Shown: positions 1 through 35,192 of the stretch, piece by piece
How the letters are laid out: each line of letters begins with the position of its first letter
How positions within the stretch are numbered: position 1 is the stretch's first letter
Assembly (NCBI GenBank): GCA_026995265.1
Contig: JALWPC010000636.1
Span: 1 to 35,192, forward strand
Length of the DNA: 35,192 nucleotides
Source: Paracoccaceae bacterium
GTDB taxonomy: Bacteria > Pseudomonadota > Alphaproteobacteria > Rhodobacterales > Rhodobacteraceae
Direction of reading: 5' to 3'
Position numbers and translations under genes: made by a program
Notes under the pieces: model-generated
The model's input: only the letters and a program-made list of their open reading frames with translations
Databases searched by the model: none
What the model was told of the DNA's origin: nothing

Positions 1-127
1 TTGACCATGGGTTTGGTTGTGTTGATTATAAAATTGGCAAATATGGCCCATTTGTGCCCGGCTTTGGCGAGCCGGATGGGCGCTATTATTTTGATAGCGA
101 AGCGCTTGCCACCGCCGCTAAAAAATT
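1..127. repeat. Left copy of 127-bp terminal repeat
   Basis: These 127 bases are identical to 35066-35192. A coding sequence reads through the join without interruption, so the two ends are one locus on a circle. A length of exactly 127 equals a common maximum assembly k-mer, so this is more likely an assembly overlap of a circular or circularly permuted genome than a physical direct terminal repeat. Confidence 0.95.
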
Positions 128-10970: not shown

Positions 10971-11141
10971 CAGACGCCATCAAAAGACTGCGCGATGCGT
11001 GCCGTTTGGAAATTCCGTCAAGAAGTAATCATGGAAGATGGCGACATTGATATTCTGCGCGGGCAAAATCTAGCCTGCTGGTGCAAAATCGGTGAACCCT
11101 GCCACGCAGACGTGCTGCTTAAATTAGCTAATGAGGAGTAA
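10967..11141 (+). pseudogene. Truncated, probably frameshifted DUF4326-type gene
   Basis: A start with a strong site (GAGGAAGAATG at 10967, overlapping the upstream stop) opens a 27-codon frame that ends at 11050. The +1 frame from 10995 to 11141 encodes 48 residues containing LRGQNLACWCKIGEPCHADV, the hallmark C-terminal motif of DUF4326, and it ends LLKLANEE. The usual N-terminal half of that family is missing. Either a single-base shift broke the gene, or the short 48-residue protein is made on its own from 10995 with a weak site. DUF4326 function is unknown. Confidence 0.6.
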
Positions 11142-11145
11142 GCAC

Positions 11146-11358
11146 ATGGCCACGAATATGAATATCAAGATAGTTTACCACAGGCTGCGCAATCTGCGCA
11201 TAAAATATAACGAAGGGCTGCACGAGCAATCGCAGAAGCTTGGCATAAGGCCCGTTACCATTTCTGCTATCGAGCGCGGGAAAATACAGCCACCAGAGGG
11301 TTTAGATGAAAAAATTAAAAACTGTTATCCAGAGGAACTAACCCATGACCAAGATTAA
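11146..11358 (+). CDS. XRE-like HTH protein, 70 aa
   Basis: GAGGAG precedes the ATG at 11146. The sequence RLRNLRIKYNEGLHEQSQKL, then GIRPVTISAIERGKIQPPEG, is a classical Cro/XRE helix-turn-helix: L...R......Q...A..LGI....IS.IE.G...P. It is probably a transcription regulator acting inside the early operon. The recognition helix carries PVTISAIERG. It overlaps the next gene by 14 bp. Confidence 0.8.
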   Translation: MATNMNIKIVYHRLRNLRIKYNEGLHEQSQKLGIRPVTISAIERGKIQPPEGLDEKIKNCYPEELTHDQD

Positions 11359-11576: not shown

Positions 11577-11846
11577 ATGAGCAGCAAACAGATTAACTTT
11601 CAACCAATCGACTATGAGAAAGTTGAATATGGCAAGCCATATTACCTTATGTTTCAAAATGGCGACATTATACGCGCCAGCCTTATAAGAGACCATGTGG
11701 TTGATGGTGACGATATTTGGCAGGACCAGTGGGTTGCCGTCGAGGGATCGCCATATCCAGAATGCTGGAGTAATGGTGCGTGCTGGGATTTTAACGAAGA
11801 CGGCGAACCGTCCATGCTGCCAAAGCTGATAGCGGAGATTCAGTGA
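11577..11846 (+). CDS. Hypothetical acidic protein, 89 aa
   Basis: The ATG at 11577 is 4 bases after the previous stop. The sequence is beta-rich and tryptophan-rich (YYLMFQNGDIIRASLIRDHV, then WQDQWVAVEG and ACWDFNEDGEP). No family is recognised, but the style is that of small phage proteins with one SH3-like or OB-like fold. Its stop overlaps the next start (TGATG). Confidence 0.6.
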   Translation: MSSKQINFQPIDYEKVEYGKPYYLMFQNGDIIRASLIRDHVVDGDDIWQDQWVAVEGSPYPECWSNGACWDFNEDGEPSMLPKLIAEIQ

Positions 11847-12417: not shown

Positions 12418-13498
12418 ATGGACTCACGCGCCGGGCTTCAAGGGCGAGACATGGAACCCGATAGTTGGCTGCGACATCGAAAGCGCAGGCTGTAAAAATT
12501 GCTATGCAATGAAGCAGGCCCATCGCATCGAGAAGATGCAACCGGGCGGCCACTATAAAGGCACAACAAAACTGGTGAAGGGCAAGGCCGTGTGGACGGG
12601 AAAGGTCAAGCAAGCGCCAAAGAAAAACCTCACCGCGCCCCTGCGCTGGAGCAAGCCGCGCTTGGTTTTCGTCAACTCCATGGGCGACCTGCTCCACCCT
12701 AATGTGCCGGTCGAATGGATTGACAGGGTTTTCGCCGTCATGGCACTGGCCCCGCAACATAAATTCCTTGTGCTGACAAAACACCCCAAACGGATGCGGG
12801 AATATCTAACAGCTTTTAAGCCAGCCAAGTCGGGGCACCCGCACGACCCACAAGACCATTATCCATATGTTACACGCCATGGCACGGATGTGCCAGACAG
12901 GCCGAAGGGTGAAGTATGCTTCCACAGTAACGATTGGCCGCTCCCCAATGTCGGCCTCGGCGTATCGGTCGAAAACCAAGAGACCGCAGATAAGCGCATC
13001 CCAAAACTACTGCAAACGCCCGCCGCCATGCGCTTTGTGTCTTATGAGCCTGCACTTTGTCCGGTGGATTTTACAAACATCACGGCCTCAACGCCAACCG
13101 GCGATGAACAATGGAATTGCCTCGACAAAGTAGAAGCGCGAGATGCAGAAGGTCCAGCGCCTAAAACAGTTATTGACCAGATTATCATGGGCGGCGAGAG
13201 CGGCAAGAACGCTCGGCCATTACACGCCCATTGGGTGCGACAGACACGCGACCAATGCGCTGCCGCCGGAACACCGTTTTTCCTCAAACAGTTGGGAAAT
13301 CAGGTAGGTGAGCGGCCTGAAAATTTCAAAGAGTGGTGGACCGATAGCGCAAAAAATATTGCCGCACGCGAGCGTGAAATAATAACCCTCAAGCATCGCA
13401 AAGGAGCGGACCCATTGGAGTGGCCGGAGGATTTCCGCATCCAACAATTCCCGGAGTGGATAACCACGCCATCGCAGCAACAGGAGAGTGAAGAATGA
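12404..13498 (+). CDS. DUF5131 (phage Gp37/Gp68 family) protein, 364 aa
   Basis: The N-terminal motif EWTHAPGFKGETWNPIVGCD, with C23, then C30 and C33 (SAGCKNCYAM), together with VFVNSMGDLLH, VLTKHPKRM, GLGVSVENQETADKRI, RFVSYEPAL and MGGESG, is the full signature of the DUF5131/Gp37-Gp68 family. The three cysteines recall a radical-SAM-type iron-sulfur site, but the chemistry and substrate are not established. Members occur in many phages and genomic islands, so nucleic-acid modification is a reasonable guess. Length is normal. It has a GAGGAAAG site. Confidence 0.88.
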   Translation: MTKIEWTHAPGFKGETWNPIVGCDIESAGCKNCYAMKQAHRIEKMQPGGHYKGTTKLVKGKAVWTGKVKQAPKKNLTAPLRWSKPRLVFVNSMGDLLHPNVPVEWIDRVFAVMALAPQHKFLVLTKHPKRMREYLTAFKPAKSGHPHDPQDHYPYVTRHGTDVPDRPKGEVCFHSNDWPLPNVGLGVSVENQETADKRIPKLLQTPAAMRFVSYEPALCPVDFTNITASTPTGDEQWNCLDKVEARDAEGPAPKTVIDQIIMGGESGKNARPLHAHWVRQTRDQCAAAGTPFFLKQLGNQVGERPENFKEWWTDSAKNIAAREREIITLKHRKGADPLEWPEDFRIQQFPEWITTPSQQQESEE

Positions 13499-13560
13499 CT
13501 AACTGGCAAGGAAAGCCAAAGAATGACTAAACCAACGAATGCACGGAATTAACGGGGCTT

Positions 13561-13767
13561 GTGGTGATTTGGCTGGTTCTAGTTATCACTTTCACAGATA
13601 GCGAGGGGCTGTTGTTTCGTGGATTGGGAATCTGGCTCACTGTTTTGTGCGCAGGACTCTGCCTTCGTGCTAGTTTCGATAATGGCTTTCAACCCGTTGT
13701 TAGAATGTTTTTCTATACCGCGTGTGTGATTAGTATTATCATTTTTGCCTTTTTGTTCAACGGCTGA
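13561..13767 (+). CDS. Small membrane protein, 68 aa
   Basis: Three hydrophobic segments can be seen: VIWLVLVITFTD (about 2-13), GIWLTVLCAGLCLRASF (about 22-38) and MFFYTACVISIIIFAFLFNG (about 49-68). The frame is open upstream to 13531 (TNECTELTGL) without an ATG, so the start may be GTG at 13561 or 13564, or the original start may have been lost by a frameshift. It is the penultimate frame of the early operon. No family is recognised. Confidence 0.5.
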   Translation: MVIWLVLVITFTDSEGLLFRGLGIWLTVLCAGLCLRASFDNGFQPVVRMFFYTACVISIIIFAFLFNG

Positions 13768-13776
13768 CGGCGCGCC

Positions 13777-13917
13777 GTGGGCTGGTTGCTTCTAATATAT
13801 GTTTTAGTGCTTCTTTTTGAAAGCTGGGTGCGGCGGGTTAAGGCGCGGTTGGGCAAAGAGAACCCCACGGGCCGAAACCCGTGGGGGCCACCCGATAAAT
13901 CAGGTGGGTGGTCTTGA
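13777..13917 (+). CDS. Possible small membrane protein, 46 aa, GTG start
   Basis: The frame encodes one clear transmembrane helix (GWLLLIYVLVLLFESWV) followed by a basic segment (RRVKARLGKE) and a Gly/Pro-rich tail. The tail is encoded by the hairpins at 13863-13911, so the frame may simply run into a terminator. There is no good ribosome site before the GTG. The hydrophobic start is protein-like, but I keep this call tentative. Confidence 0.35.
   Translation: MGWLLLIYVLVLLFESWVRRVKARLGKENPTGRNPWGPPDKSGGWS
13863..13886 (-). terminator. Strong hairpin between converging operons
   Basis: A perfect 9-bp stem CCCCACGGG / CCCGTGGGG has a 6-base loop (CCGAAA on plus). On the minus strand it is followed by TTCTCTTT, so it best fits the intrinsic terminator of the leftward late operon, whose last gene ends at 14211. 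No T-run follows on the plus strand. Confidence 0.55.
13888..13911. other. Second hairpin in the convergent region
   Basis: CCACCC (13888-13893) pairs with GGGTGG (13906-13911) across a 12-base loop, directly after the first hairpin. On the plus strand it is followed by TCTTG. It may help terminate rightward early transcripts. It is weaker than its neighbour. Confidence 0.35.
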
Positions 13918-15826: not shown

Positions 15827-15978
15827 TATATTTCCCAAGTCCTTGCGCAGTGGGCGGTATAGCCGTGCATTATGTTCCCGTTTTCAAGCCAAAAACATTC
15901 CGTAAATGTTGGCGGCGGGTTTTGTGTTGGGACCGTTGCGCATCCGGCCAAAACCAAAGCCATCACCGCCGCCTTCAT
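15826..15978 (-). CDS. Small lipoprotein, 50 aa
   Basis: The ATG overlaps the o-spanin stop (ATGA) and the TAA overlaps the next start. The N-terminus MKAAVMALVLAGCATVP has a short hydrophobic stretch and a lipobox LAGC, so Cys13 is likely acylated. The short mature part is proline-rich and then contains two cysteines (TECFWLENG, GYTAHCARTW) that may form a disulfide. It is a second lipoprotein in the lysis cassette. It may be an extra spanin-like or superinfection-exclusion lipoprotein, but no family is recognised. Confidence 0.65.
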   Translation of the reverse strand: MKAAVMALVLAGCATVPTQNPPPTFTECFWLENGNIMHGYTAHCARTWEI

Positions 15979-16259
15979 TGCTCTAGATACTCCACGAGGG
16001 AATTATGTGTTAATCGGCACTTATGGTATGCCACAGCCCAGTCGGCTGCCGCAAGGTTGACCATGGTCTGCACCTGTTCCCGCCCTGTCATGGCGTCCCA
16101 GCGCTCTTGTGGGATGTCTAGCACAGGGAGTGCGTCAGGGCATCGTTCCATCATGCTCGGCGTTGGTGCGGGCTTAGGGGCGTCCCCAATAGGCGCCCAG
16201 CGGGTTGAGCAAGCGGCGAGAAGCGGAATCAAAACCACCAATGATAAATGTCGCATCAT
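15975..16259 (-). CDS. Outer-membrane spanin (o-spanin) lipoprotein, 94 aa
   Basis: The N-terminus MMRHLSLVVLIPLLAACST is a lipoprotein signal with lipobox LAAC (acylated Cys17). A proline-rich stretch follows (GDAPKPAPTPS) and then a helical periplasmic domain. It begins in the stop of the inner-membrane spanin gene. With that partner it would span the periplasm and disrupt the outer membrane in the last step of lysis. The identification rests on lipobox, size and gene order, as spanins are poorly conserved in sequence. Confidence 0.8.
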   Translation of the reverse strand: MMRHLSLVVLIPLLAACSTRWAPIGDAPKPAPTPSMMERCPDALPVLDIPQERWDAMTGREQVQTMVNLAAADWAVAYHKCRLTHNSLVEYLEQ

Positions 16260-16615
16260 CCACCCCTCGCTGCCTTGTTCAGAACCTCGACGGTCCCGAA
16301 GTCTATTTTACATTCACCACGCACAATCACGGGATTGTCCCGCACCACCTCACGAATGACGGTCTGGACATTGCCACGGGCTAGAGTCAGGTCAGTTGCC
16401 AGCCGATCCCGTTCATCCTCTAATCGGGCGTATTTGTCCTCCCATTCGGCCTGTATTCGTTCAATAGCGGCTTCCTGAGCGCGTTTCTCGATGGACCGGC
16501 CTTGCGACACGCCAGAGGCCCAGACGGCCACCAGCAGGCCCACAGCCGCCAATATCGCCCATATTTGCCATGGGGCACCTTTTAGAAAGTTCACCACGGC
16601 AAGGAAGATGCTCAT
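16256..16615 (-). CDS. Inner-membrane spanin (i-spanin, Rz-like), 119 aa
   Basis: I chose the ATG at 16615, which overlaps the endolysin stop (ATGA). One N-terminal membrane helix (WQIWAILAAVGLLVAVWASG, about 16-36) is followed by a long periplasmic coiled coil (AIERIQAEWEDKYARLEDER) ending in a short beta-like tail. This is the Rz layout. It lies between the endolysin and the o-spanin gene, as expected for a Gram-negative lysis cassette. Confidence 0.85.
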   Translation of the reverse strand: MSIFLAVVNFLKGAPWQIWAILAAVGLLVAVWASGVSQGRSIEKRAQEAAIERIQAEWEDKYARLEDERDRLATDLTLARGNVQTVIREVVRDNPVIVRGECKIDFGTVEVLNKAARGG

Positions 16616-17151
16616 TTCAAAATCCCTTCCAGAAACTTGCACCCCGACCGGAGGCCGCCGGGGGCTTCAACATGGGCGTCACTTGTGACCTCATCGGCGG
16701 TCAGATATAGCGCCCGTTCGGCCTTGCGGCGGCGCGTTAGACCGGCGACCGGCTGCAACTTGCCGTCGATGCGGGCCTTGTTCCAAAGCAGGAAGCTGTC
16801 AGCCGCCTTTTCGTCGTCATTCCGGCGGGCGTATCTAGCCACACTGGAACCCTTGAACGCGCCAATACCGACATTATAGGCAAGCGAGACCATCGCGCTA
16901 AATTCATTTTCCCCGATAAACCCCTTTTCTATGGCTTCATACAAGGCGGATTCCACCCCTTCCTCAAAGCTGGCAATATCCCGCCTTAGAAGCGTCTCGG
17001 CGTCTGTTTCCAATATTTCCATGCCCTCGACAACATCCGGCCCCGTGTGGCCGTAGCCGATGGTCAGAACGCCCGCTATGTCGCGATAGGCTTTTAATTC
17101 AAGCCCCTCGAAGGATTTGACCAGGTCAATGCCCGCTTGGTTTATTTTCAT
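16612..17151 (-). CDS. Endolysin, GH24 lysozyme (T4/P22 type), 179 aa
   Basis: I chose the ATG at 17151, which overlaps the stop of the DUF1353 gene. The catalytic triad fits E15-x8-D24-x5-T30 in VKSFEGLELKAYRDIAGVLT, followed by IGYGHTG. Later motifs AMVSLAYNVGIGAFKGSSVA and PVAGLTRRRKAERALYL are typical of the family. It cleaves the glycan backbone of peptidoglycan. There is no signal peptide or signal-anchor, so release needs a holin. The length is normal and all catalytic residues are present. Confidence 0.93.
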   Translation of the reverse strand: MKINQAGIDLVKSFEGLELKAYRDIAGVLTIGYGHTGPDVVEGMEILETDAETLLRRDIASFEEGVESALYEAIEKGFIGENEFSAMVSLAYNVGIGAFKGSSVARYARRNDDEKAADSFLLWNKARIDGKLQPVAGLTRRRKAERALYLTADEVTSDAHVEAPGGLRSGCKFLEGILK

Positions 17152-17510
17152 TTTTGCTTCCACTTCACCGTATTCGTGAACCAAAGCACCGCGAAAAATG
17201 CAAGCCACGACCTGACAGAACCAATACCAACCGATCTTAACACGCGCCTAAATTCCGCAGCCGCCACATTCTTCTCGGTGCCGTTGACTAAAAGATAGTC
17301 ATGCACAAGGGCGGCTTCCAACCAGCGCAAATCATGGGGGTTTATTATTTTACGGATACCGGGAACGCGCGGCAAGGTCACATCAAATTCAAAACCGCGT
17401 GGAATGTCGATGCGATGGGTGAGTTTGCCACCGCCCATATACCAATAATATGGGTGTTCCAGACGGAATTTGTCACCGCCGATATTGGTTATGAGCGAGC
17501 CTATTGCCAA
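17148..17510 (-). CDS. DUF1353 protein, 120 aa, probable TTG start
   Basis: The sequence RLEHPYYWYMGGGKLTHRID, then IPRGFEFDVTLPRVPGIRKI and AALVHDYLLVN, is characteristic of DUF1353, a small phage family found beside lysis and tail genes. The motif AALVHDYL...... with charged follow-up is well conserved. A hydrophobic segment near the C-terminus (SWLAFFAVLWFTNTVKW) may associate with membrane. No ATG fits, and TTG at 17510 with AAGGA upstream is the likely start. Function of the family is unknown; a peptidase-like role has been suggested from its conserved His-Asp. Confidence 0.8.
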   Translation of the reverse strand: MAIGSLITNIGGDKFRLEHPYYWYMGGGKLTHRIDIPRGFEFDVTLPRVPGIRKIINPHDLRWLEAALVHDYLLVNGTEKNVAAAEFRRVLRSVGIGSVRSWLAFFAVLWFTNTVKWKQK

Positions 17511-18022: not shown

Positions 18023-19639
18023 CTATAGGTAATATGCACCATCGCTCGAAAACAATGTTGCTGAATCGCCGGGGATAAAGTCCGCTGCACCGCCCTCGGT
18101 GTCCAACATGCTGCCGCTGCCTACATTATATCTTAGTCCGGTCCCTGTCCCGGTGAGAGAGAATACCGTATTTTTTAACCAGCAATATGTTTGCTGTCGC
18201 ATGTAAAATGCACCGGCGGCGCCCCATGCGTGGCTGGCAGTGAGTGTAATTGTTGTGCCGAATAGTGTTAAATAGCTTTGCCCATACATTGACGCGATGT
18301 TCGTATTGTTTGCGAGTATTTCTAAATTGGTGGAGGATGCAATGACATTAGCCCCGCTTTCAATATAGAACATGCGCGTTCCAACATTAGATTTGCAATC
18401 CTTGCAAGTGACAACAGACTTAGTTTGTGCTCTAACCCCCGATGCCGTTGCGTCAAATTGAAAACCTTGAATGGTCACAAAGGCACCATTTTTAACTAAG
18501 AATGAATTGGTTTGTCCGCTCCCAACCTTCACATTGGATGGCGTAGTTGTGTCGCCAGTTATGACGCAATCGCCGGACCCCAAAAGACCGCCTTTAATTG
18601 TGACCTGTTCATTATAACTACCGGCAGCGACGGATATGGATATTTGATAAATTGAATTATCAATGCTTTGAGCCGTATCAACCGCTTTTTGAATGGTGGC
18701 AAACGCCCCAGAACCGCTTGACATGCCATCATTGGAGTCTGAACCATTTGTTCCGTCGACATAGTAGGTTCTGGCCGCCGTTAATTTTTCGCGCGTAATC
18801 GTTCGGAGCGCGAAGGTATCCCCCAAGGCGACCCAAGAGGTTCCATCATATTGCATCCAAGCAGATGTCCCTTGGTCGTAGTAAATTACACCTGTTGCGG
18901 GGGCTAGAAAATTCCACTTGGAGTTACTCCAACCAGCAAGTTGACCGTCCTTGCCCGCCCATTCTCCCGTGGCGCCGGTCCCGACAACATATTTGTCCCC
19001 TTCTGCCGGAGAGGCTGGCGGGGTCGTTGTGGTGGAATTCTTATATACTTTATCTCGCCAAATAGAGACTTTCATCGGGACAAGGCTTGTGGTCGTGCTG
19101 GAGAAACCAATCACATCATCGACCGAACCAGAGCCCGGGCTGACGGTAACGCCATTAACAACAATATCTTCAGGAAACGACATATAAGGCGCGGCGGCGT
19201 CGTAAACTGCCTTTGCCGTCACAACCCCATTAACCGCAGTTGAAACCGACCCATCCGTTTCCCTGAAAAATCCCGTTGTTGAATCCGCTGTGTAGAACAA
19301 ACCGGGGGCGCTAACGGTTCCGTTTGGCAGGCCTACGCCTTGTCCGTCTAGCCATGTGTTGCCGACACCATTGGAGGAAAAGGCAATCCGTCCGGATGTT
19401 TTCCAATAGAATCCCGTGTTTGTGTCAGAGGTGAATGTTATTGAGGGCAGGCTTGATGTCCCATCAGGAAAATTAACCGGCCCCACAAAGGGCACGCTGC
19501 CCGCTATAATAGCCGTCAAGGCATCGGCAATGTCCTGATCGTGCGTATCATGGGCATCTGCTAATATAAGGATATTGTTATCCCTATCGTCTGTCCAATC
19601 GCGATTGCGCGAAAAGACACCGGCTCCGCTAAAGGGCAT
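18023..19639 (-). CDS. Tail spike / receptor-binding protein with beta-helix, 538 aa
   Basis: Residues 65-93 and 112-139 are repeats of a fibre motif (SDTNTGFYWKTSGRIAFSSN and TADSTTGFFRETDGSVSTAV). A DUF2793-like region follows at about 205-272 (PPASPAEGDKYVVGTGATGE, then WAGKDGQLAGW). From 292 the sequence TYYVDGTNGSDSNDG opens a right-handed beta-helix of pectin-lyase type that runs to about 520. The first 50 residues probably attach to the tail. It would bind and perhaps depolymerise a surface polysaccharide. Catalytic residues cannot be named from sequence alone. Confidence 0.85.
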   Translation of the reverse strand: MPFSGAGVFSRNRDWTDDRDNNILILADAHDTHDQDIADALTAIIAGSVPFVGPVNFPDGTSSLPSITFTSDTNTGFYWKTSGRIAFSSNGVGNTWLDGQGVGLPNGTVSAPGLFYTADSTTGFFRETDGSVSTAVNGVVTAKAVYDAAAPYMSFPEDIVVNGVTVSPGSGSVDDVIGFSSTTTSLVPMKVSIWRDKVYKNSTTTTPPASPAEGDKYVVGTGATGEWAGKDGQLAGWSNSKWNFLAPATGVIYYDQGTSAWMQYDGTSWVALGDTFALRTITREKLTAARTYYVDGTNGSDSNDGMSSGSGAFATIQKAVDTAQSIDNSIYQISISVAAGSYNEQVTIKGGLLGSGDCVITGDTTTPSNVKVGSGQTNSFLVKNGAFVTIQGFQFDATASGVRAQTKSVVTCKDCKSNVGTRMFYIESGANVIASSTNLEILANNTNIASMYGQSYLTLFGTTITLTASHAWGAAGAFYMRQQTYCWLKNTVFSLTGTGTGLRYNVGSGSMLDTEGGAADFIPGDSATLFSSDGAYYL

Positions 19640-19704
19640 ATTTTACTCCATTCGGTTTTGTGTTAGCTTCGGAATGTATTAGAAGCCATCCCGCGAGGTG
19701 ATTT

Positions 19705-19875
19705 ATGGTCAGGGCAATTTCTTACCCGCTAGGGATTTATCTAGTTCACTGGTTGTTCAATAATTGGGGCTGGTGGGCAATCGGTCTATTCTTTGCCATC
19801 GGCGTCCCAATTGGCTTAATTCTTGAGGTCTTCTTTTACCCTGACGGAAGCCGCCGCCCCCGTCGCGGGCAATAG
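19705..19875 (+). CDS. Opposite-strand small membrane protein, 56 aa
   Basis: This rightward ORF occupies the gap between the leftward spike and ejection-protein genes and overlaps the latter by 60 bp tail to tail. It has a GAGGTG site 5 bases before the ATG. The protein has a hydrophobic, tryptophan-rich core (YPLGIYLVHWLFNNWGWWAI, then GLFFAIGVPIGLILEVFFYP) forming one or two membrane helices, and a basic tail (GSRRPRRGQ). It is the only plus-strand gene in 20 kb of late genes. A moron-type role such as superinfection exclusion is a reasonable guess. No clear promoter is seen. Confidence 0.6.
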   Translation: MVRAISYPLGIYLVHWLFNNWGWWAIGLFFAIGVPIGLILEVFFYPDGSRRPRRGQ

Positions 19876-21972
19876 TGGGCTGCTGGTCGGTATCGGTCTT
19901 GGGGCACCCCTTACCGCTCTCGCCGCTTCTTCGGCTGCGGGGCTAACCTCTTTCAATATGCGCGTTCCTATCATTTGAGGCACACGCCCGCCAATGCGCA
20001 TAAAGCTATTCAGCATCGCCAAGATATGTGTTCCGGTGTCTGAATTATTAACCGCCCCCGGTAATGGCTCGATAAAGCCCAAGACCTTCTCGAATTGTTC
20101 CATGCGCGACAATTCATCGGGGGTGAATAATTCCTTCATAAGGTGCCGCCCCTCCCCCTTTAGCTGGCGGTTCCATACCTCACGGAATGTCCCTATTTTC
20201 ATCTGCGTGCCGCCACGGGCGAAGCCTTGCTTGATCATTCTATCAAGCGCTGCTTCCCGCACCGCCTGCCATTCTTGGCTTTCAGGCCCCAGAATTTCCT
20301 TTAACCGGCGCACCGCTAGTTGAGACCCGCGCTTTTGCCCCAAGGCCGACGATGAGCCGAATATAAGGTTAACCGTCTCGGAAGGCGTCAGGTCATCGCT
20401 GACAATATCGTTTATAATCTTCCCGGCGAAGTCTTTATTGTTCTGGACCTCGAACTTGCTACCATAAAGCCGCCGTGCGCCACGGGCCTTTTTCAGGGCA
20501 TCCAAGAAGCCGGGGTCGCCTTCGATAATCCCTTTGGTGGTGGCCTCGTCTAGCCATCCGTCGAGCGACGCCTTGGCCAGCAGAACCCCGCGCCGGTCCT
20601 CCGGCGTCTTGGCGGCGTTGTAGGCGGCGTTAAGGTCTTTTCTGAATTTCTCAATTTCCCGCCAATCTATGCCCTTTAATTCCGCAGGCTCGACCTCGCT
20701 TCCCGGTGTCGTTAAGGCTCTTTCAGAATCCGCTATAGACGCGCGGGCGCGGGCAAGATTTTGGTCAAATCTGTCCAAGTCCTCCATAACCCTGAATGTT
20801 TGCTCATACCGCCTAGCCGTCGATTGGCGGGAACTAAACAGGGAAGGATTAACTACCTCCTCCGGCAACGAATCACGGATGATGTCCCTTAGTTGTCTTG
20901 CGTCGTGAATATCCACCGAAGCGCTATACTCTGCCGCCTTCTTGTAAGCGGTCTGTATCTCGCTTGAGAGCGCTTTTTCCTTGTTCCGGAGGCCACGGGC
21001 AATCATGGCGCCTGCGGTTTCCGTGTCGGGGGCTACCCGCGCGCCCAGCATATTGTTCGCCGCCTGCCTAACCTGATTGGCCTGCGCGCCTTGGAATGAC
21101 CGCATGGTCTCCATGGCCGGGCCACCCTTAACGCCTTTGGCCATCTGGCTTTCAATGCGTTGCTGGACAACATCGCCCGTGGCTTGGCCCGCCGTCAGGT
21201 CAACATCAAATTGCCGCGCTAAATCCTCGGCGGCGATAGCGGCTTCCATATCGCGGGCCCCCGATGGCCGCGTGCCTTTTTCTAGGGCCTCTAACACGGG
21301 CGGCTTTGTGCTTGTAATCCCCCGCGCTTCTTTGATTTTCTTACCCAAATAGCGGCCCATGGGGCGTGCTATAGGCGAAATAGCGGCTGAAATAACCTCC
21401 CCCGCGCCGCCACCAGCGGCGGCCATGCCAACATCGCCCAACTTAACCCCTTGCTCGGACCCGAAAGCCTGCGAAGCCTTTTGTGATGCCGCCTCCGTTG
21501 CGCCGGAAGCCGCCGCGCCGATGCCCATCTTGGACAGAAGCCCCGCGCCCATGGTCGCGGCCTTGCCTGCGGGCGCGAACTTAATCACATCACCGGCAAA
21601 GTCCGTCACATCTTGGGCGTCAATGCCGGGCTTGTTGATATAGCGCCATTTGTCGCCGGGCAACTTAACCAGTGTCCGGCCCTCGCTATCGCGACCAACC
21701 GCGGCATCTGGATATTGCTTCTTTATCATATCCGCGCGGGCATCTTGATTGCGGTTTAGGAAATAGCCGCCCGCGATTTTTGCATTCTTGGCCGTGTTCT
21801 GGAAAAAGCCACCATCCGGTCTTCCGCTCATGCTCACGGTCTGCCCCGCAATCATGCTGTCGGGGACCGGTGCGTTATTCAACAGCCCGTATTGGATAGA
21901 CTGTTCAGCGGCGCGACGCCTTGCGTTGGCAATCGCTATCGCCTTTTTTTGTTCTGCCGTTAATTCGCCCAT
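19816..21972 (-). CDS. DNA-ejection / internal virion protein, 718 aa
   Basis: I chose the ATG at 21972, overlapping the end of the 413-aa gene with GAGGAG upstream. The N-terminal segment is helical with many Ala/Arg (TAEQKKAIAIANARRRAAEQ). Gly/Ala-rich membrane-active stretches follow (KMGIGAAASGATEAASQKAS, DVGMAAAGGGAGEVISAAIS), then long coiled-coil regions (EKALSSEIQTAYKKAAEYSA). Size, order and composition are those of the large ejection protein of P22-like podoviruses, which leaves the capsid to form the trans-envelope channel. There is no lytic transglycosylase motif. Confidence 0.7.
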   Translation of the reverse strand: MGELTAEQKKAIAIANARRRAAEQSIQYGLLNNAPVPDSMIAGQTVSMSGRPDGGFFQNTAKNAKIAGGYFLNRNQDARADMIKKQYPDAAVGRDSEGRTLVKLPGDKWRYINKPGIDAQDVTDFAGDVIKFAPAGKAATMGAGLLSKMGIGAAASGATEAASQKASQAFGSEQGVKLGDVGMAAAGGGAGEVISAAISPIARPMGRYLGKKIKEARGITSTKPPVLEALEKGTRPSGARDMEAAIAAEDLARQFDVDLTAGQATGDVVQQRIESQMAKGVKGGPAMETMRSFQGAQANQVRQAANNMLGARVAPDTETAGAMIARGLRNKEKALSSEIQTAYKKAAEYSASVDIHDARQLRDIIRDSLPEEVVNPSLFSSRQSTARRYEQTFRVMEDLDRFDQNLARARASIADSERALTTPGSEVEPAELKGIDWREIEKFRKDLNAAYNAAKTPEDRRGVLLAKASLDGWLDEATTKGIIEGDPGFLDALKKARGARRLYGSKFEVQNNKDFAGKIINDIVSDDLTPSETVNLIFGSSSALGQKRGSQLAVRRLKEILGPESQEWQAVREAALDRMIKQGFARGGTQMKIGTFREVWNRQLKGEGRHLMKELFTPDELSRMEQFEKVLGFIEPLPGAVNNSDTGTHILAMLNSFMRIGGRVPQMIGTRILKEVSPAAEEAARAVRGAPRPIPTSSPLLPATGAAASVRVKEDLKN

Positions 21973-23201
21973 AAGGCGCGCTCCTCTGGCGTCATGTATT
22001 TCCATACTTCCGGATCAACGCCTTGGGGCGGCGGTCCCTGTGGCGCTTGTTCCTGCGCCCCGCCTTTCCTTTGTGCTTTCCATTCCCCGAAAGACTGGCC
22101 ATACACCTTGTCAGCATTCTGCGGCGACAGTGGCTCATAGCCGCCCATGCCGTTCGGCACGCCGTTAACAACAGCATTATAAAGCCTGTCGAGGCGCTCA
22201 AGATTATAAAGGAGGTCATCAGCACTTTGCGATTGGTCCAAACTGCCCTTTACGGCTTGCAGTTGCCTGTTTTCGAAATCAGATACTTGCCCCAATGCGC
22301 CGCCTGTCGGGGAATTGTTCCGCATTTCCTGCAATTTATCAAAACCGATGTTCGCAGTGATTGTTTTAAGTCGATTGGCAACCGCCTTGGCTGGTGTATT
22401 AGGTATTTTGCTTGTGTAAGACAGCGCTCCGGTCGTGGCTACTGGGTTTGCCTCAATCGCATCAATAGCGTTGCGTATTTCTTGTGAAACGAGGGAGCCT
22501 TGTATTTTTGCCGCATCCTCGCGCTTGCTTGGGTCTTGAGGCCCTCCCCGTATCGCCTCCATATAGTAACGCCCGTCATCGTCTTTCGTCAGCGCGAAAC
22601 CTTGAGGAATTGACCCGACCTGCGGGCCGCTTGATCCGGTGTTAACCGTCAAGGAAGTCCCGACGCTAGGTGCTTTGACGCCACCTATGCGGCTCCACTG
22701 CCCCGATTGGGGGTCATATTGGGCCTTGTAGGGCTGGCCTGTTTGCGGATCAAAAAATTCCTGAACCGTTGGCTGCCGGTGCTCCCGCTTGTAATCCTCC
22801 TTAGCCCTAAAGTCCTCAAGGGCATTACGCCGCTGTTGCTCCGCCATTTTGGCGCTATACTGCATTTTTTGCTGTTCCGCCAACATTTGCTGGCCAAGCT
22901 CCGGGTTTAGCTTCATCACCATGGCTATTCTTTCGGGCGTAACGGTCGCATCGCCGTCTTTGCCAAGAAGTAATTCGGATAGGCGCTGATTATAATCTTC
23001 CTTCATTTGCGAGGCTTTTTCCCTCCGCTTTTTGCCAAGATACGCGCCCGCCAACCGCGCCGCCCCTTGGGTCCAGCTTTGCACCGGGCCGCCTTGTAGC
23101 GATTTTTGCAACAGCAATTCGGCCATTTGTTGCTTGCGCTGAATATCGTCAATCGAAGGATAAACTTTAGCCTGTTGTGGGGCCTGTAAATATCTTAACA
23201 T
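21960..23201 (-). CDS. DNA-ejection-type internal protein, 413 aa
   Basis: It lies between the 481-aa and 718-aa proteins. The first 130 residues are helical, Gln-rich and charged (IDDIQRKQQMAELLLQKSLQ, QWLAEQQ-like MLAEQQKMQYSAKMAEQQRR). A beta-rich middle follows (FFDPQTGQPYKAQYDPQSGQ), then a helical C-terminal part (AKAVANRLKTITANIGFDKL). This mixture is common to podoviral ejection proteins. The exact family is not recognised. The call depends mostly on position and composition. Confidence 0.6.
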   Translation of the reverse strand: MLRYLQAPQQAKVYPSIDDIQRKQQMAELLLQKSLQGGPVQSWTQGAARLAGAYLGKKRREKASQMKEDYNQRLSELLLGKDGDATVTPERIAMVMKLNPELGQQMLAEQQKMQYSAKMAEQQRRNALEDFRAKEDYKREHRQPTVQEFFDPQTGQPYKAQYDPQSGQWSRIGGVKAPSVGTSLTVNTGSSGPQVGSIPQGFALTKDDDGRYYMEAIRGGPQDPSKREDAAKIQGSLVSQEIRNAIDAIEANPVATTGALSYTSKIPNTPAKAVANRLKTITANIGFDKLQEMRNNSPTGGALGQVSDFENRQLQAVKGSLDQSQSADDLLYNLERLDRLYNAVVNGVPNGMGGYEPLSPQNADKVYGQSFGEWKAQRKGGAQEQAPQGPPPQGVDPEVWKYMTPEERALWAN

Positions 23202-23203
23202 GA

Positions 23204-24649
23204 TTAACCCCCTATAAATGCCGCGCCAAGATCAAACAGGCCGCCATTGAAGGCGTTAGCGTTGCGTGAGCGCTGGTTGTAATTATTATAGATGTAGCCG
23301 CCAATAGGGGCAGCGCCTATGGCCTGCTGATAGCTGCCTTGAAATTGGGGAACATTCAACTGATTGCCGGAAAGAAGCGCGGCGATTTCATTCAAGGGCT
23401 GGTTTCGCAAGGAAAGCTGTTCTTGCAATGATTGGCCGCGAAGGTTCCCCATGGCACCAAGTTCCTGCAGCAGGGATTGATTGCCGAATTGTGCTTCCGT
23501 CAAACCCTGACCAAATGCTTGGTTTTGGGCTTGGTTATTGAAGCCGCCTTGGCGTAATTCCATGTTCTGCAACCGCGATTGCTCACTACCACCCGCAAGT
23601 ATGGCCTGCATGGCGGCGTCGTTATATTGCTGGCCAAGCAAATCCATCTGGTTATTATAAGCCTCACTTCCCGGCATCAAACCCTGATTGCGCAAACGGC
23701 TTTCCGCCGCATCGCGCTGCCGGTTGAAGTTTCGGCTAAACCGACCCATTAAAGCGTCCTCAACGCGTATCCTGTCCTCGGAATAGTCACTAGGCCCAAT
23801 GCTCCGCTGGATGCCGCGCCCATCAAGACCGCGTGGGGCGTCTATCCCGCCCGGCGGCGTTCCTGCAGGTTTCGGGGTAGCGGGGTCGGCGAAGGGCGAT
23901 GCAGTGACATCGCCCGTCACGGGGTCAATGGTCAGGCGATTATCGGGGCGCCCGACGGCAGGCTGGTTTGAAACCTGTTCGGACAGCAAGCCGGGGTTTA
24001 TCTGCGGCCCGGTGTTCTTTTCGCCCGTTCCGCGACTACGGAACACCAACTGGTCGCCGCCCGTTGTTGGGGGTGTTATAGGGGGCTGGTCGGGCGGGGA
24101 AACAGGCGGTGCCACGGGTGGCTGCGGCACCGTCGGGTCGGCGGGTGTTACCGGGTCCACCGTTGGTTGAACGGGCGGAACCGGCTGGCCCGATGTGATG
24201 GGCAGTTGCGGGTAGCCCGTAGGCGCGTAACCAAGCGAACCGCCGCCTGTCCCCGTTCCGTTTATGTCTATCGTTCTTTGCAGGTTTACGCTATTCGGCA
24301 TTAGCGGCGTGTTTGGGTCGGCTTGGAATGGGCGCCCCAAATAATCATTCAGCATACCGGACTGGTTCACCGCAAGCGTTCCCATATTGGTGCTGGCTTG
24401 GTTCTGCAAATCCAGAAGCTGTTGCTGCTCAGGCGAAAGTGTTTCCGTCCTTACTGTGGTCGGAACCTCGATGCGGTTACCTTGGGCGTCGGTGTAATAC
24501 CGGCTTTCACCGCTTGTATATTCCACCGAACCAAAGGGGGTGTATGTGTTGACATTATTCACCAAAGAACCCGCGATAGACGCATCACGGTTCGCGCCCG
24601 CTTGGGCATTGGCGGTTTGATAGGGATCGGGGGGTCGAGGACTTCTCAT
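23204..24649 (-). CDS. Podoviral tail/ejection-complex protein, 481 aa
   Basis: I chose the ATG at 24649, which overlaps the acetyltransferase stop. The N-terminus (NVNTYTPFGSVEYTSGESRY, then YTDAQGNRIEV) and the pattern LSPEQQQLLDLQNQASTNMG are typical of a protein family found next to ejection proteins in podoviruses. A long Pro/Thr/Asp linker at about 155-230 (PPVQPTVDPVTPADPTVPQP) separates this from a Gln/Asn-rich helical C-terminal half (EDALMGRFSRNFNRQRDAAE). A structural or DNA-ejection role is likely. The biochemical function is not known. Confidence 0.65.
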   Translation of the reverse strand: MRSPRPPDPYQTANAQAGANRDASIAGSLVNNVNTYTPFGSVEYTSGESRYYTDAQGNRIEVPTTVRTETLSPEQQQLLDLQNQASTNMGTLAVNQSGMLNDYLGRPFQADPNTPLMPNSVNLQRTIDINGTGTGGGSLGYAPTGYPQLPITSGQPVPPVQPTVDPVTPADPTVPQPPVAPPVSPPDQPPITPPTTGGDQLVFRSRGTGEKNTGPQINPGLLSEQVSNQPAVGRPDNRLTIDPVTGDVTASPFADPATPKPAGTPPGGIDAPRGLDGRGIQRSIGPSDYSEDRIRVEDALMGRFSRNFNRQRDAAESRLRNQGLMPGSEAYNNQMDLLGQQYNDAAMQAILAGGSEQSRLQNMELRQGGFNNQAQNQAFGQGLTEAQFGNQSLLQELGAMGNLRGQSLQEQLSLRNQPLNEIAALLSGNQLNVPQFQGSYQQAIGAAPIGGYIYNNYNQRSRNANAFNGGLFDLGAAFIGG

Positions 24650-25068
24650 GTTAAAAACCTGCAATCGCTTTTGAGCATCCCAAACATGTGCAAATCATCC
24701 TCGCCATAGCCATAAGCCTTTGGCCGGATACCTTCCGGCTTGAAGCCAAGACCTAAAGCAAGGCGCTGACAACGCTTGTTTGTTCCTGCTATTTCTGCTG
24801 ATAGGCGGGTGAAGGTTTGAGCTTCAAAAACCCACTTGAAAAAATACCGGACAAAGCCCGGCGTAAATGCGGTTGGTGTCTCCGCATATATGCTGACGGC
24901 TATATCGTGGGGCCGATAATCCGTCAATACGAGGCCGCCAACCAGCCTTCCGGCATCGTTGACCGCCCCAAAACAATAATAGGGCTTAAAGCCCGTTTCT
25001 TGGGCAACCGGAAAAGGTAGCGCCACATAGTCCGCTATCCATTGCTGCCGCCCGTGTATTAGCCTCAT
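24646..25068 (-). CDS. GNAT-fold acetyltransferase-like protein, 140 aa
   Basis: The sequence AVNDAGRLVGGLVLTDYRPH, then RLSAEIAGTNKRCQRLALGL and GFKPEG, gives the GNAT pattern: beta4, the N.+.+.....GF+.EG motif that ends an acetyl-CoA site. It starts in an ATGA overlap with the 521-aa gene and ends in another, so it is part of the late operon. Such small acetyltransferases occur within podoviral tail modules. The target could be a virion protein or a host factor. The pyrophosphate loop (Q/R-x-x-G-x-G/A) is degenerate. Confidence 0.8.
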   Translation of the reverse strand: MRLIHGRQQWIADYVALPFPVAQETGFKPYYCFGAVNDAGRLVGGLVLTDYRPHDIAVSIYAETPTAFTPGFVRYFFKWVFEAQTFTRLSAEIAGTNKRCQRLALGLGFKPEGIRPKAYGYGEDDLHMFGMLKSDCRFLT

Positions 25069-34734: not shown

Positions 34735-35192
34735 ATGACCATGCACAAACACTCAAACAATTGTGATCTAGCAGGCGGGCGCGATGCTGCCTATATGACT
34801 CTATCCGGTCCAAATGTATTGCAATTGCGTGACATTGCAAAAGCGCATGGGATCGAATGGCATCATGCAGCCGGTCACAATTCAGGGCGCCAAGTAATTG
34901 CGTTTTTTCCCAAAAACGCTGACGAAATTGCAGCCGTCAATAGACTGGCTGAGGCTGTTGACCAAGCGGCAATGGCTGAAAAAGCTAAAAAAGAGGCGCT
35001 CAAAAAAGCGGGCTTGCCAACATCAAAAGCGGCGCTCTGGCGCCATTTAGAATCTAATGGCGATGTTGACCATGGGTTTGGTTGTGTTGATTATAAAATT
35101 GGCAAATATGGCCCATTTGTGCCCGGCTTTGGCGAGCCGGATGGGCGCTATTATTTTGATAGCGAAGCGCTTGCCACCGCCGCTAAAAAATT
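34735..35192 (+). CDS. 5' part of junction-spanning hypothetical gene (156 aa in all)
   Basis: The ATG at 34735 has AAGGAG 8 bases upstream. The frame runs to the end of the window and continues at base 128 (through the repeat, base 3) to the stop at 140, giving 156 residues. Visible parts are a beta-alpha start (TLSGPNVLQLRDIAKAHGIE), a charged helix (AVDQAAMAEKAKKEALKKAG) and an aromatic C-terminal region. I do not recognise the family. Rightward direction and position next to the terminase promoter region suggest an early or regulatory gene. Confidence 0.7.
   Translation, partial: MTMHKHSNNCDLAGGRDAAYMTLSGPNVLQLRDIAKAHGIEWHHAAGHNSGRQVIAFFPKNADEIAAVNRLAEAVDQAAMAEKAKKEALKKAGLPTSKAALWRHLESNGDVDHGFGCVDYKIGKYGPFVPGFGEPDGRYYFDSEALATAAKK
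35066..35192. repeat. Right copy of 127-bp terminal repeat
   Basis: Identical to 1-127. It closes the sequence into a circle of 35,065 bp and lies inside the coding sequence of the split gene. Confidence 0.95.

What the first reader, a model, noticed from the sequence alone, without database searches (positions are those of the whole stretch)
19705..19875. Lone opposite-strand membrane gene inside the late tail module
A 56-codon rightward gene with a good ribosome site fills the gap between spike and ejection genes in a 20-kb leftward operon and overlaps the ejection gene tail to tail. Isolated small membrane genes in structural modules are often morons or superinfection-exclusion factors. 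Antisense transcription could also affect the ejection gene.
Basis: partly seen in the sequence, partly recalled or inferred. Interest (0 to 1): 0.7.

Follow-up and report, generated by a model that had tools for sequence, protein, structure and literature searches.

The report
Reverse-strand membrane gene at phage ejection/spike junction
A tiny membrane-protein gene that points the wrong way inside a phage's structural genes is probably real: related phages carry different small envelope-protein genes, in the same backward orientation, at exactly this spot, the spot where the well-studied phage P22 keeps a gene that blocks rival phages from injecting DNA.

Summary
A 56-codon ATG frame (19705-19875, +) with a GAGGTG ribosome site fills the largest gap (176 nt) of a leftward structural operon and overlaps the last 60 nt of the putative ejection gene. 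It encodes one long hydrophobic helix with a basic tail. No sequence homologue was found, and its codon usage is uninformative. The position is what matters. In 22 relatives the junction of ejection gene and spike/next gene carries reverse-oriented small envelope genes: a 2-TM family (12 loci), a C-tail-anchored family (5 loci), or singletons, often behind a lipoprotein gene, usually converging on the ejection gene. Many are unannotated. Close pairs show purifying selection (pN/pS 0.16-0.39). Eight other relatives have a closed junction, so the locus is a variable insertion site. P22's sieA, an inner-membrane protein that blocks DNA ejection, has the same position and orientation. Best reading: a real accessory (moron-type) gene, most likely for superinfection exclusion. 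Gene reality is well supported; the function is inferred by analogy only. A caveat is that the window genome appears complete but has no recognised integrase, whereas all 12 near-complete carriers tested have one.

The parts
19705..19875 (+). 56-aa membrane protein ORF (P0001), reverse to the late operon
   Evidence: AlphaFold2 single-sequence model: one helix, residues 3-44, mean pLDDT 83.6
19695..19700 (+). ribosome-binding site GAGGTG, 4 nt before ATG
   Evidence: sequence; SD-like plus hydrophobic combination unique among 105 plus-strand ORFs of the late block
19780..19836 (+). most hydrophobic 19 codons (residues 26-44), predicted membrane span, followed by basic tail
   Evidence: Kyte-Doolittle 19-residue maximum 2.34 at residues 26-44
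19640..19815 (.). 176-nt gap between spike and ejection genes, widest in the late operon
19816..19875 (.). tail-to-tail overlap of the ORF with the ejection gene
19816..22005 (-). putative ejection/internal virion protein, 729 aa (P0002)
   Evidence: position after the motif protein and before the spike; no family hit; weak colinear profile match to relatives' ejection proteins, E 0.2
18023..19639 (-). tail spike/fibre protein, 538 aa (P0003)
   Evidence: DUF2793 E 8e-20; PHROG tail-fibre families; N-terminal MPFSGAG anchor shared with relatives' spikes
21960..23201 (-). structural protein with conserved GFDKLQEMR..SPTGGALGQVS motif, used to find relatives

Best explanation
The ORF is a real accessory gene, inserted backwards at the boundary between the DNA-ejection gene and the spike gene, a site that related podophages use repeatedly for small reverse-oriented envelope-protein genes. 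It makes a small inner-membrane protein that most likely acts as a superinfection-exclusion factor: made from its own rightward transcript when the late operon is silent, it sits in the inner membrane and interferes with the ejection conduit of incoming related phages, in the manner of P22 SieA. Shown: the frame, the position, the hydrophobic helix (predicted), the recurrence of reverse-oriented envelope genes at this junction in relatives, and purifying selection on two of those families. Inferred: expression, membrane location, exclusion, and its target.
For: Window: SD plus hydrophobic ORF in the gap, 0.3% by shuffling; unique among 105 ORFs. Recurrence: reverse-oriented small membrane genes at the same junction in RHph_I3_18, Mae-JY35, RHph_N2, RHph_Y25, pCB2047-C, RHph_I1_23 and IMG/VR loci L050, L013, L074-L077, L080-L083, in prophage-like loci of Celeribacter, Roseivivax, Paracoccus and one further contig, and in EBPR podovirus 2. 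L013 and L083 lie on contigs whose capsid protein is 68% and 73% identical to the window's. A profile of the 2-TM family run over 397 whole genomes independently hit one of these junctions (L098). Selection: pN/pS 0.16-0.17 (L080/L081, L070/L081), 0.28 (L075/L091), 0.39 (L077/L092). Gaps: an opposite-strand TM ORF in 16 of 19 open junctions against 1 of 10 other gaps. P22: sieA (13336-13830, -) converges on gene 16 (ends 13313), upstream of spike gene 9; [quoted passage not shown]). Lysis genes are elsewhere (16612-17208 endolysin; 15975-16642 weak Rz-like).
Against: No homologue of the 56-aa protein in viral contigs, phage records, PHROGs, Pfam or 395 genomes of its order beyond marginal hits; it does not match the 2-TM profile. 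Codon usage is no better than antisense frames. No sigma-70-like promoter above chance upstream. The window contig has a 127-bp exact terminal repeat, so it looks complete, yet has no tyrosine integrase or resolvase match, which weakens a prophage role. SieA is about 160 aa with several TM helices; this protein has one.
Confidence: 0.45

Rival explanations
1. Chance open frame in a spacer: the 176-nt gap holds regulatory or leftover DNA and the ORF is not translated.
For: No homologue; neutral codon score; an ORF this long arises in about 10% of shuffled gaps, 2.6% with a ribosome site; eight relatives have a closed junction.
Against: 0.3% when hydrophobicity is added; relatives with an open junction mostly carry reverse envelope genes, some under purifying selection.
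Confidence: 0.2
2. Lysogenic-conversion or host-envelope gene with a role other than exclusion: a moron that changes host surface or stress behaviour.
For: All 12 near-complete carriers tested encode a tyrosine integrase; several cassettes include lipoproteins of unknown function.
Against: Fixed position next to the ejection gene suggests linkage to injection; the window phage itself has no recognised integrase.
Confidence: 0.18
3. Lysis accessory: holin, antiholin or spanin component.
For: Small membrane protein; in relatives a lipoprotein next to a TM protein superficially recalls Rz/Rz1 pairs.
Against: Opposite to late transcription; endolysin and Rz-like genes lie together at 15975-17208; the TM proteins have no long periplasmic domain; no lysis PHROG hit for the window ORF or the relatives' cassette proteins.
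Confidence: 0.08
4. Convergent or antisense transcription that tunes the ejection gene, with the ORF incidental.
For: 60-nt tail-to-tail overlap.
Against: Overlaps in relatives vary and are often only 4 nt; selection there acts on the protein.
Confidence: 0.05

Closest known systems
P22 sieA (Salmonella phage P22, Lederbergvirus), superinfection exclusion inner-membrane protein
   Same: Reverse to the late genes, converging on the last ejection gene and upstream of the tail-spike gene; membrane protein; virion with ejection proteins and spikes.
   Different: SieA is about 160 aa with several TM helices; here 56 aa with one predicted TM. sieA has an annotated promoter; none was recognised here. 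No homology found; function untested.
2-TM reverse-strand family of Sulfitobacter phage pCB2047-C, EBPR podovirus 2 and roseobacter prophage-like loci (found here, largely unannotated)
   Same: Same junction, orientation, size class, overlap with the ejection gene.
   Different: Two helices (3-35 and 45-64 in the model) against one; no detectable sequence similarity.
RHph_N2 EVC05_015 family (Rhizobium phages)
   Same: Same junction, orientation, 56-58 aa.
   Different: Polar N-terminus and a C-terminal anchor; unrelated sequence.
EexN-type entry-exclusion lipoproteins (IncN plasmids)
   Same: The lipoprotein gene that precedes the TM gene in RHph_I3_18 has a sub-threshold match (18.3 bits, cut-off 33).
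   Different: Below cut-off and confined to residues 5-49, which include the lipoprotein signal; the window has no such lipoprotein gene.

Membership tests
Moron (autonomous accessory gene in a phage structural operon) | Present in some relatives, absent with a closed junction in others | tested here: met
   Reverse genes at the junction in 22 relatives, closed junction in 8; shown for the site, not for this sequence
Moron (autonomous accessory gene in a phage structural operon) | Own promoter and terminator | tested here: inconclusive
   Promoter score at chance level; one weak terminator-like match, 0.8 expected
Moron (autonomous accessory gene in a phage structural operon) | Expressed from the prophage | not testable with these tools
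   No expression data; no integrase found on the window contig
P22 SieA superinfection-exclusion protein | Sequence similarity to SieA | tested here: not met
   No Pfam or PHROG match and no tblastn match in phage records, which include P22
P22 SieA superinfection-exclusion protein | Reverse gene between last ejection gene and spike gene | tested here: met
   the ejection assignment here is positional
P22 SieA superinfection-exclusion protein | Inner-membrane protein | tested here: inconclusive
   Predicted helix and hydropathy 2.34; location not shown
P22 SieA superinfection-exclusion protein | Blocks DNA entry of related phages | not testable with these tools
   needs experiment
2-TM reverse-strand family (pCB2047-C type) | Match to the family profile | tested here: not met
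   -1.1 bits, E 2.3
Spanin/holin | In or next to the lysis cassette, transcribed with it | tested here: not met
   Lysis genes at 15975-17208 on the other strand

The most novel reading that the evidence does not exclude
The ejection/spike junction of a broad group of mostly integrase-bearing podophages (hosts in Alphaproteobacteria and Microcystis, plus an EBPR-sludge phage) is an exclusion island: a reverse operon of an outer-membrane lipoprotein and a tiny inner-membrane protein, co-inherited with the ejection proteins it targets, forming a two-part injection-blocking system that arose independently of P22 sieA. The window gene is a minimal one-gene version.
Probability: 0.22. Interest if true: 0.75.

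Novelty: new variant of a known kind. Interest (0 to 1): 0.5.

Why it matters
If true, many podophages keep an unannotated, fast-changing set of tiny envelope proteins beside their ejection genes, in the same arrangement as P22 sieA. That would make the link between exclusion genes and the injection apparatus testable in cultured phages (Sulfitobacter pCB2047-C, Rhizobium RHph_N2), and would give a positional rule for finding exclusion genes too short for homology searches.

Tried and rejected
Homology of the 56-aa protein: viral contigs, phage records, PHROGs, Pfam, 395 genomes of the order; only marginal hits inside unrelated longer or interrupted frames. Homologues of the window's own ejection protein: none, so relatives were reached through capsid, portal and motif proteins and then through ejection proteins of annotated phages. 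Spike-based loci L018-L046 were not usable: there the spike follows the amidase gene. A profile from 13 motif proteins was too diverse to scan with. Promoter consensus upstream of 18 reverse genes: mean 8.1 of 12 against 7.4 in shuffles, not convincing. Codon usage: uninformative. L097 rejected as a false hit with no ejection gene nearby; L099 not confirmed (internal TGA, no ejection match). Lysis role rejected on position. No fold search was run, because single helices and hairpins match everything. Literature: no paper found describing this locus.

Full report
WHAT IS THERE. The window is a whole contig of a metagenome-assembled or draft genome (G000:C636). Its first and last 127 bases are identical, so it probably closes to a circle of about 35,065 bp and is a complete phage. 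The block 14.2-34.5 kb is read leftward: terminase, portal, capsid, tail, amidase, acyltransferase, a motif protein, a 729-aa putative ejection protein, a spike and lysis genes. Its widest gap is 176 nt, between ejection gene and spike. A rightward ATG frame of 56 codons starts there, 4 nt after GAGGTG, and ends 60 nt inside the ejection gene. The protein is modelled as one helix, residues 3-44, most hydrophobic at 26-44, with the tail GSRRPRRGQ.

IS IT MORE THAN CHANCE. In shuffled gaps an ATG ORF this long appears in 10%, with a ribosome site in 2.6%, with both a ribosome site and hydrophobicity in 0.3%. It is the only one of 105 plus-strand ORFs in the late block with an SD-like site and hydropathy of 2.0 or more. 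Codon usage does not help. From the window alone the case is moderate, and no homologue exists in what could be searched.

RELATIVES. Relatives were reached through the capsid, portal and motif protein, then through ejection proteins. The junction between the ejection gene and the next gene was read in each. It is closed, or nearly so, in L047, L049, L055, L057, L065, L066, L084 and L085. It is open and holds reverse-oriented small envelope genes in 22 relatives. (a) A 2-TM family: L072, L074-L077, L013, L089-L092, EBPR podovirus 2 and L098. (b) A family of 56-58 aa with a C-terminal anchor in Rhizobium phages RHph_N2 and RHph_Y25 and in L080-L082. (c) Singletons in Mae-JY35 (XAI96523.1), RHph_I1_23, RHph_I3_18, L050 and a five-gene set in L083. 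In RHph_I3_18, L050, L083, L089, L090 and EBPR podovirus 2 a lipoprotein gene with a visible lipobox precedes them, and L080 has a truncated relative of it. The last reverse gene usually overlaps the ejection gene, by 4 to 152 nt. Many are absent from the deposited annotation (RHph_Y25, pCB2047-C, RHph_I1_23, the TM genes of RHph_I3_18 and EBPR podovirus 2).

ARE THOSE REAL GENES. Pairs within the two families keep the protein while silent sites change: pN/pS 0.16 (L080/L081), 0.17 (L070/L081), 0.28 (L075/L091), 0.39 (L077/L092); distant pairs are saturated and uninformative. An opposite-strand TM ORF is found in 16 of 19 open junctions against 1 of 10 other gaps; same-strand TM ORFs, a noise measure, in 8 of 19 and 2 of 10. 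The 2-TM profile searched over 397 genomes, without reference to position, gave two hits, and the one that could be confirmed, L098, lies exactly at such a junction. Two carriers, L013 and L083, sit on contigs whose capsid protein is 68% and 73% identical to the window's, while L084 and L085 (72% and 74%) lack the insert: contents turn over faster than the capsid.

HOW IT MOST LIKELY WORKS. In P22 the reverse gene sieA (13336-13830) converges on ejection gene 16 (ends 13313), with spike gene 9 beyond. [quoted passage not shown] The window gene and its positional counterparts share position, orientation and envelope nature. By analogy the protein would sit in the inner membrane and disturb the ejection conduit of a second phage. 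This is inference; expression, location and exclusion are all unshown.

LIFESTYLE. A tyrosine integrase was found in all 12 near-complete carrier records tested and in none of five near-complete non-carriers, counting the sub-threshold match in OP596615 as absent. With the window counted as a carrier without one, Fisher p = 0.0007, or 0.008 if that match counts as present; the records are related, so these p-values are optimistic. The window itself lacks PF00589 and PF00239 matches on its contig. It has weak repressor-like (11131-11358) and replication-initiation (1799-2752) matches, so an unintegrated carrier state is possible but not shown. This is the main point against a prophage-expressed role.

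VERDICT. Real gene: about 0.75. Exclusion function of the SieA type: about 0.45. The class of system is known; the gene families at this junction and its recurrence appear undescribed in the papers I could search.

Noticed in passing
window 1-127 and 35066-35192: Exact 127-bp terminal direct repeat: the contig probably closes into a complete circular genome of about 35,065 bp. 127 is a common assembler k-mer, so it may not be a biological repeat.
   Followed up: partly
window 21960-23201 (-): Very conserved motif GFDKLQEMR..SPTGGALGQVS..EN in the protein before the ejection protein, shared with otherwise distant phages; function unknown, useful as a search handle.
   Followed up: partly
window 24646-25068 (-): Acyl-CoA N-acyltransferase-like gene inside the structural block, kept at this place in several annotated relatives.
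   Followed up: no
L083 454-1976 (+): Five-gene reverse cassette at the junction: lipoprotein, 101 aa, 62 aa, 199 aa and 62-aa TM protein, without family matches above cut-off for those tested.
   Followed up: partly
L077 5053-5370 (-): 105-aa membrane protein with a charged C-terminal helix, coupled by overlap to the 2-TM gene.
   Followed up: no
L087: In this relative the junction instead holds a forward-strand gene that looks like an HNH-type endonuclease (judged by eye): the site accepts other inserts.
   Followed up: no
window 11577-11846 (+): Weak PHROG match (E 0.0076) to a type I-E anti-CRISPR family; probably chance.
   Followed up: no
L072, L073, L071, L064, L093: Small reverse-strand membrane genes missing from the annotation of deposited phage genomes pCB2047-C, RHph_I1_23, RHph_Y25, RHph_I3_18 and EBPR podovirus 2.
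   Followed up: yes
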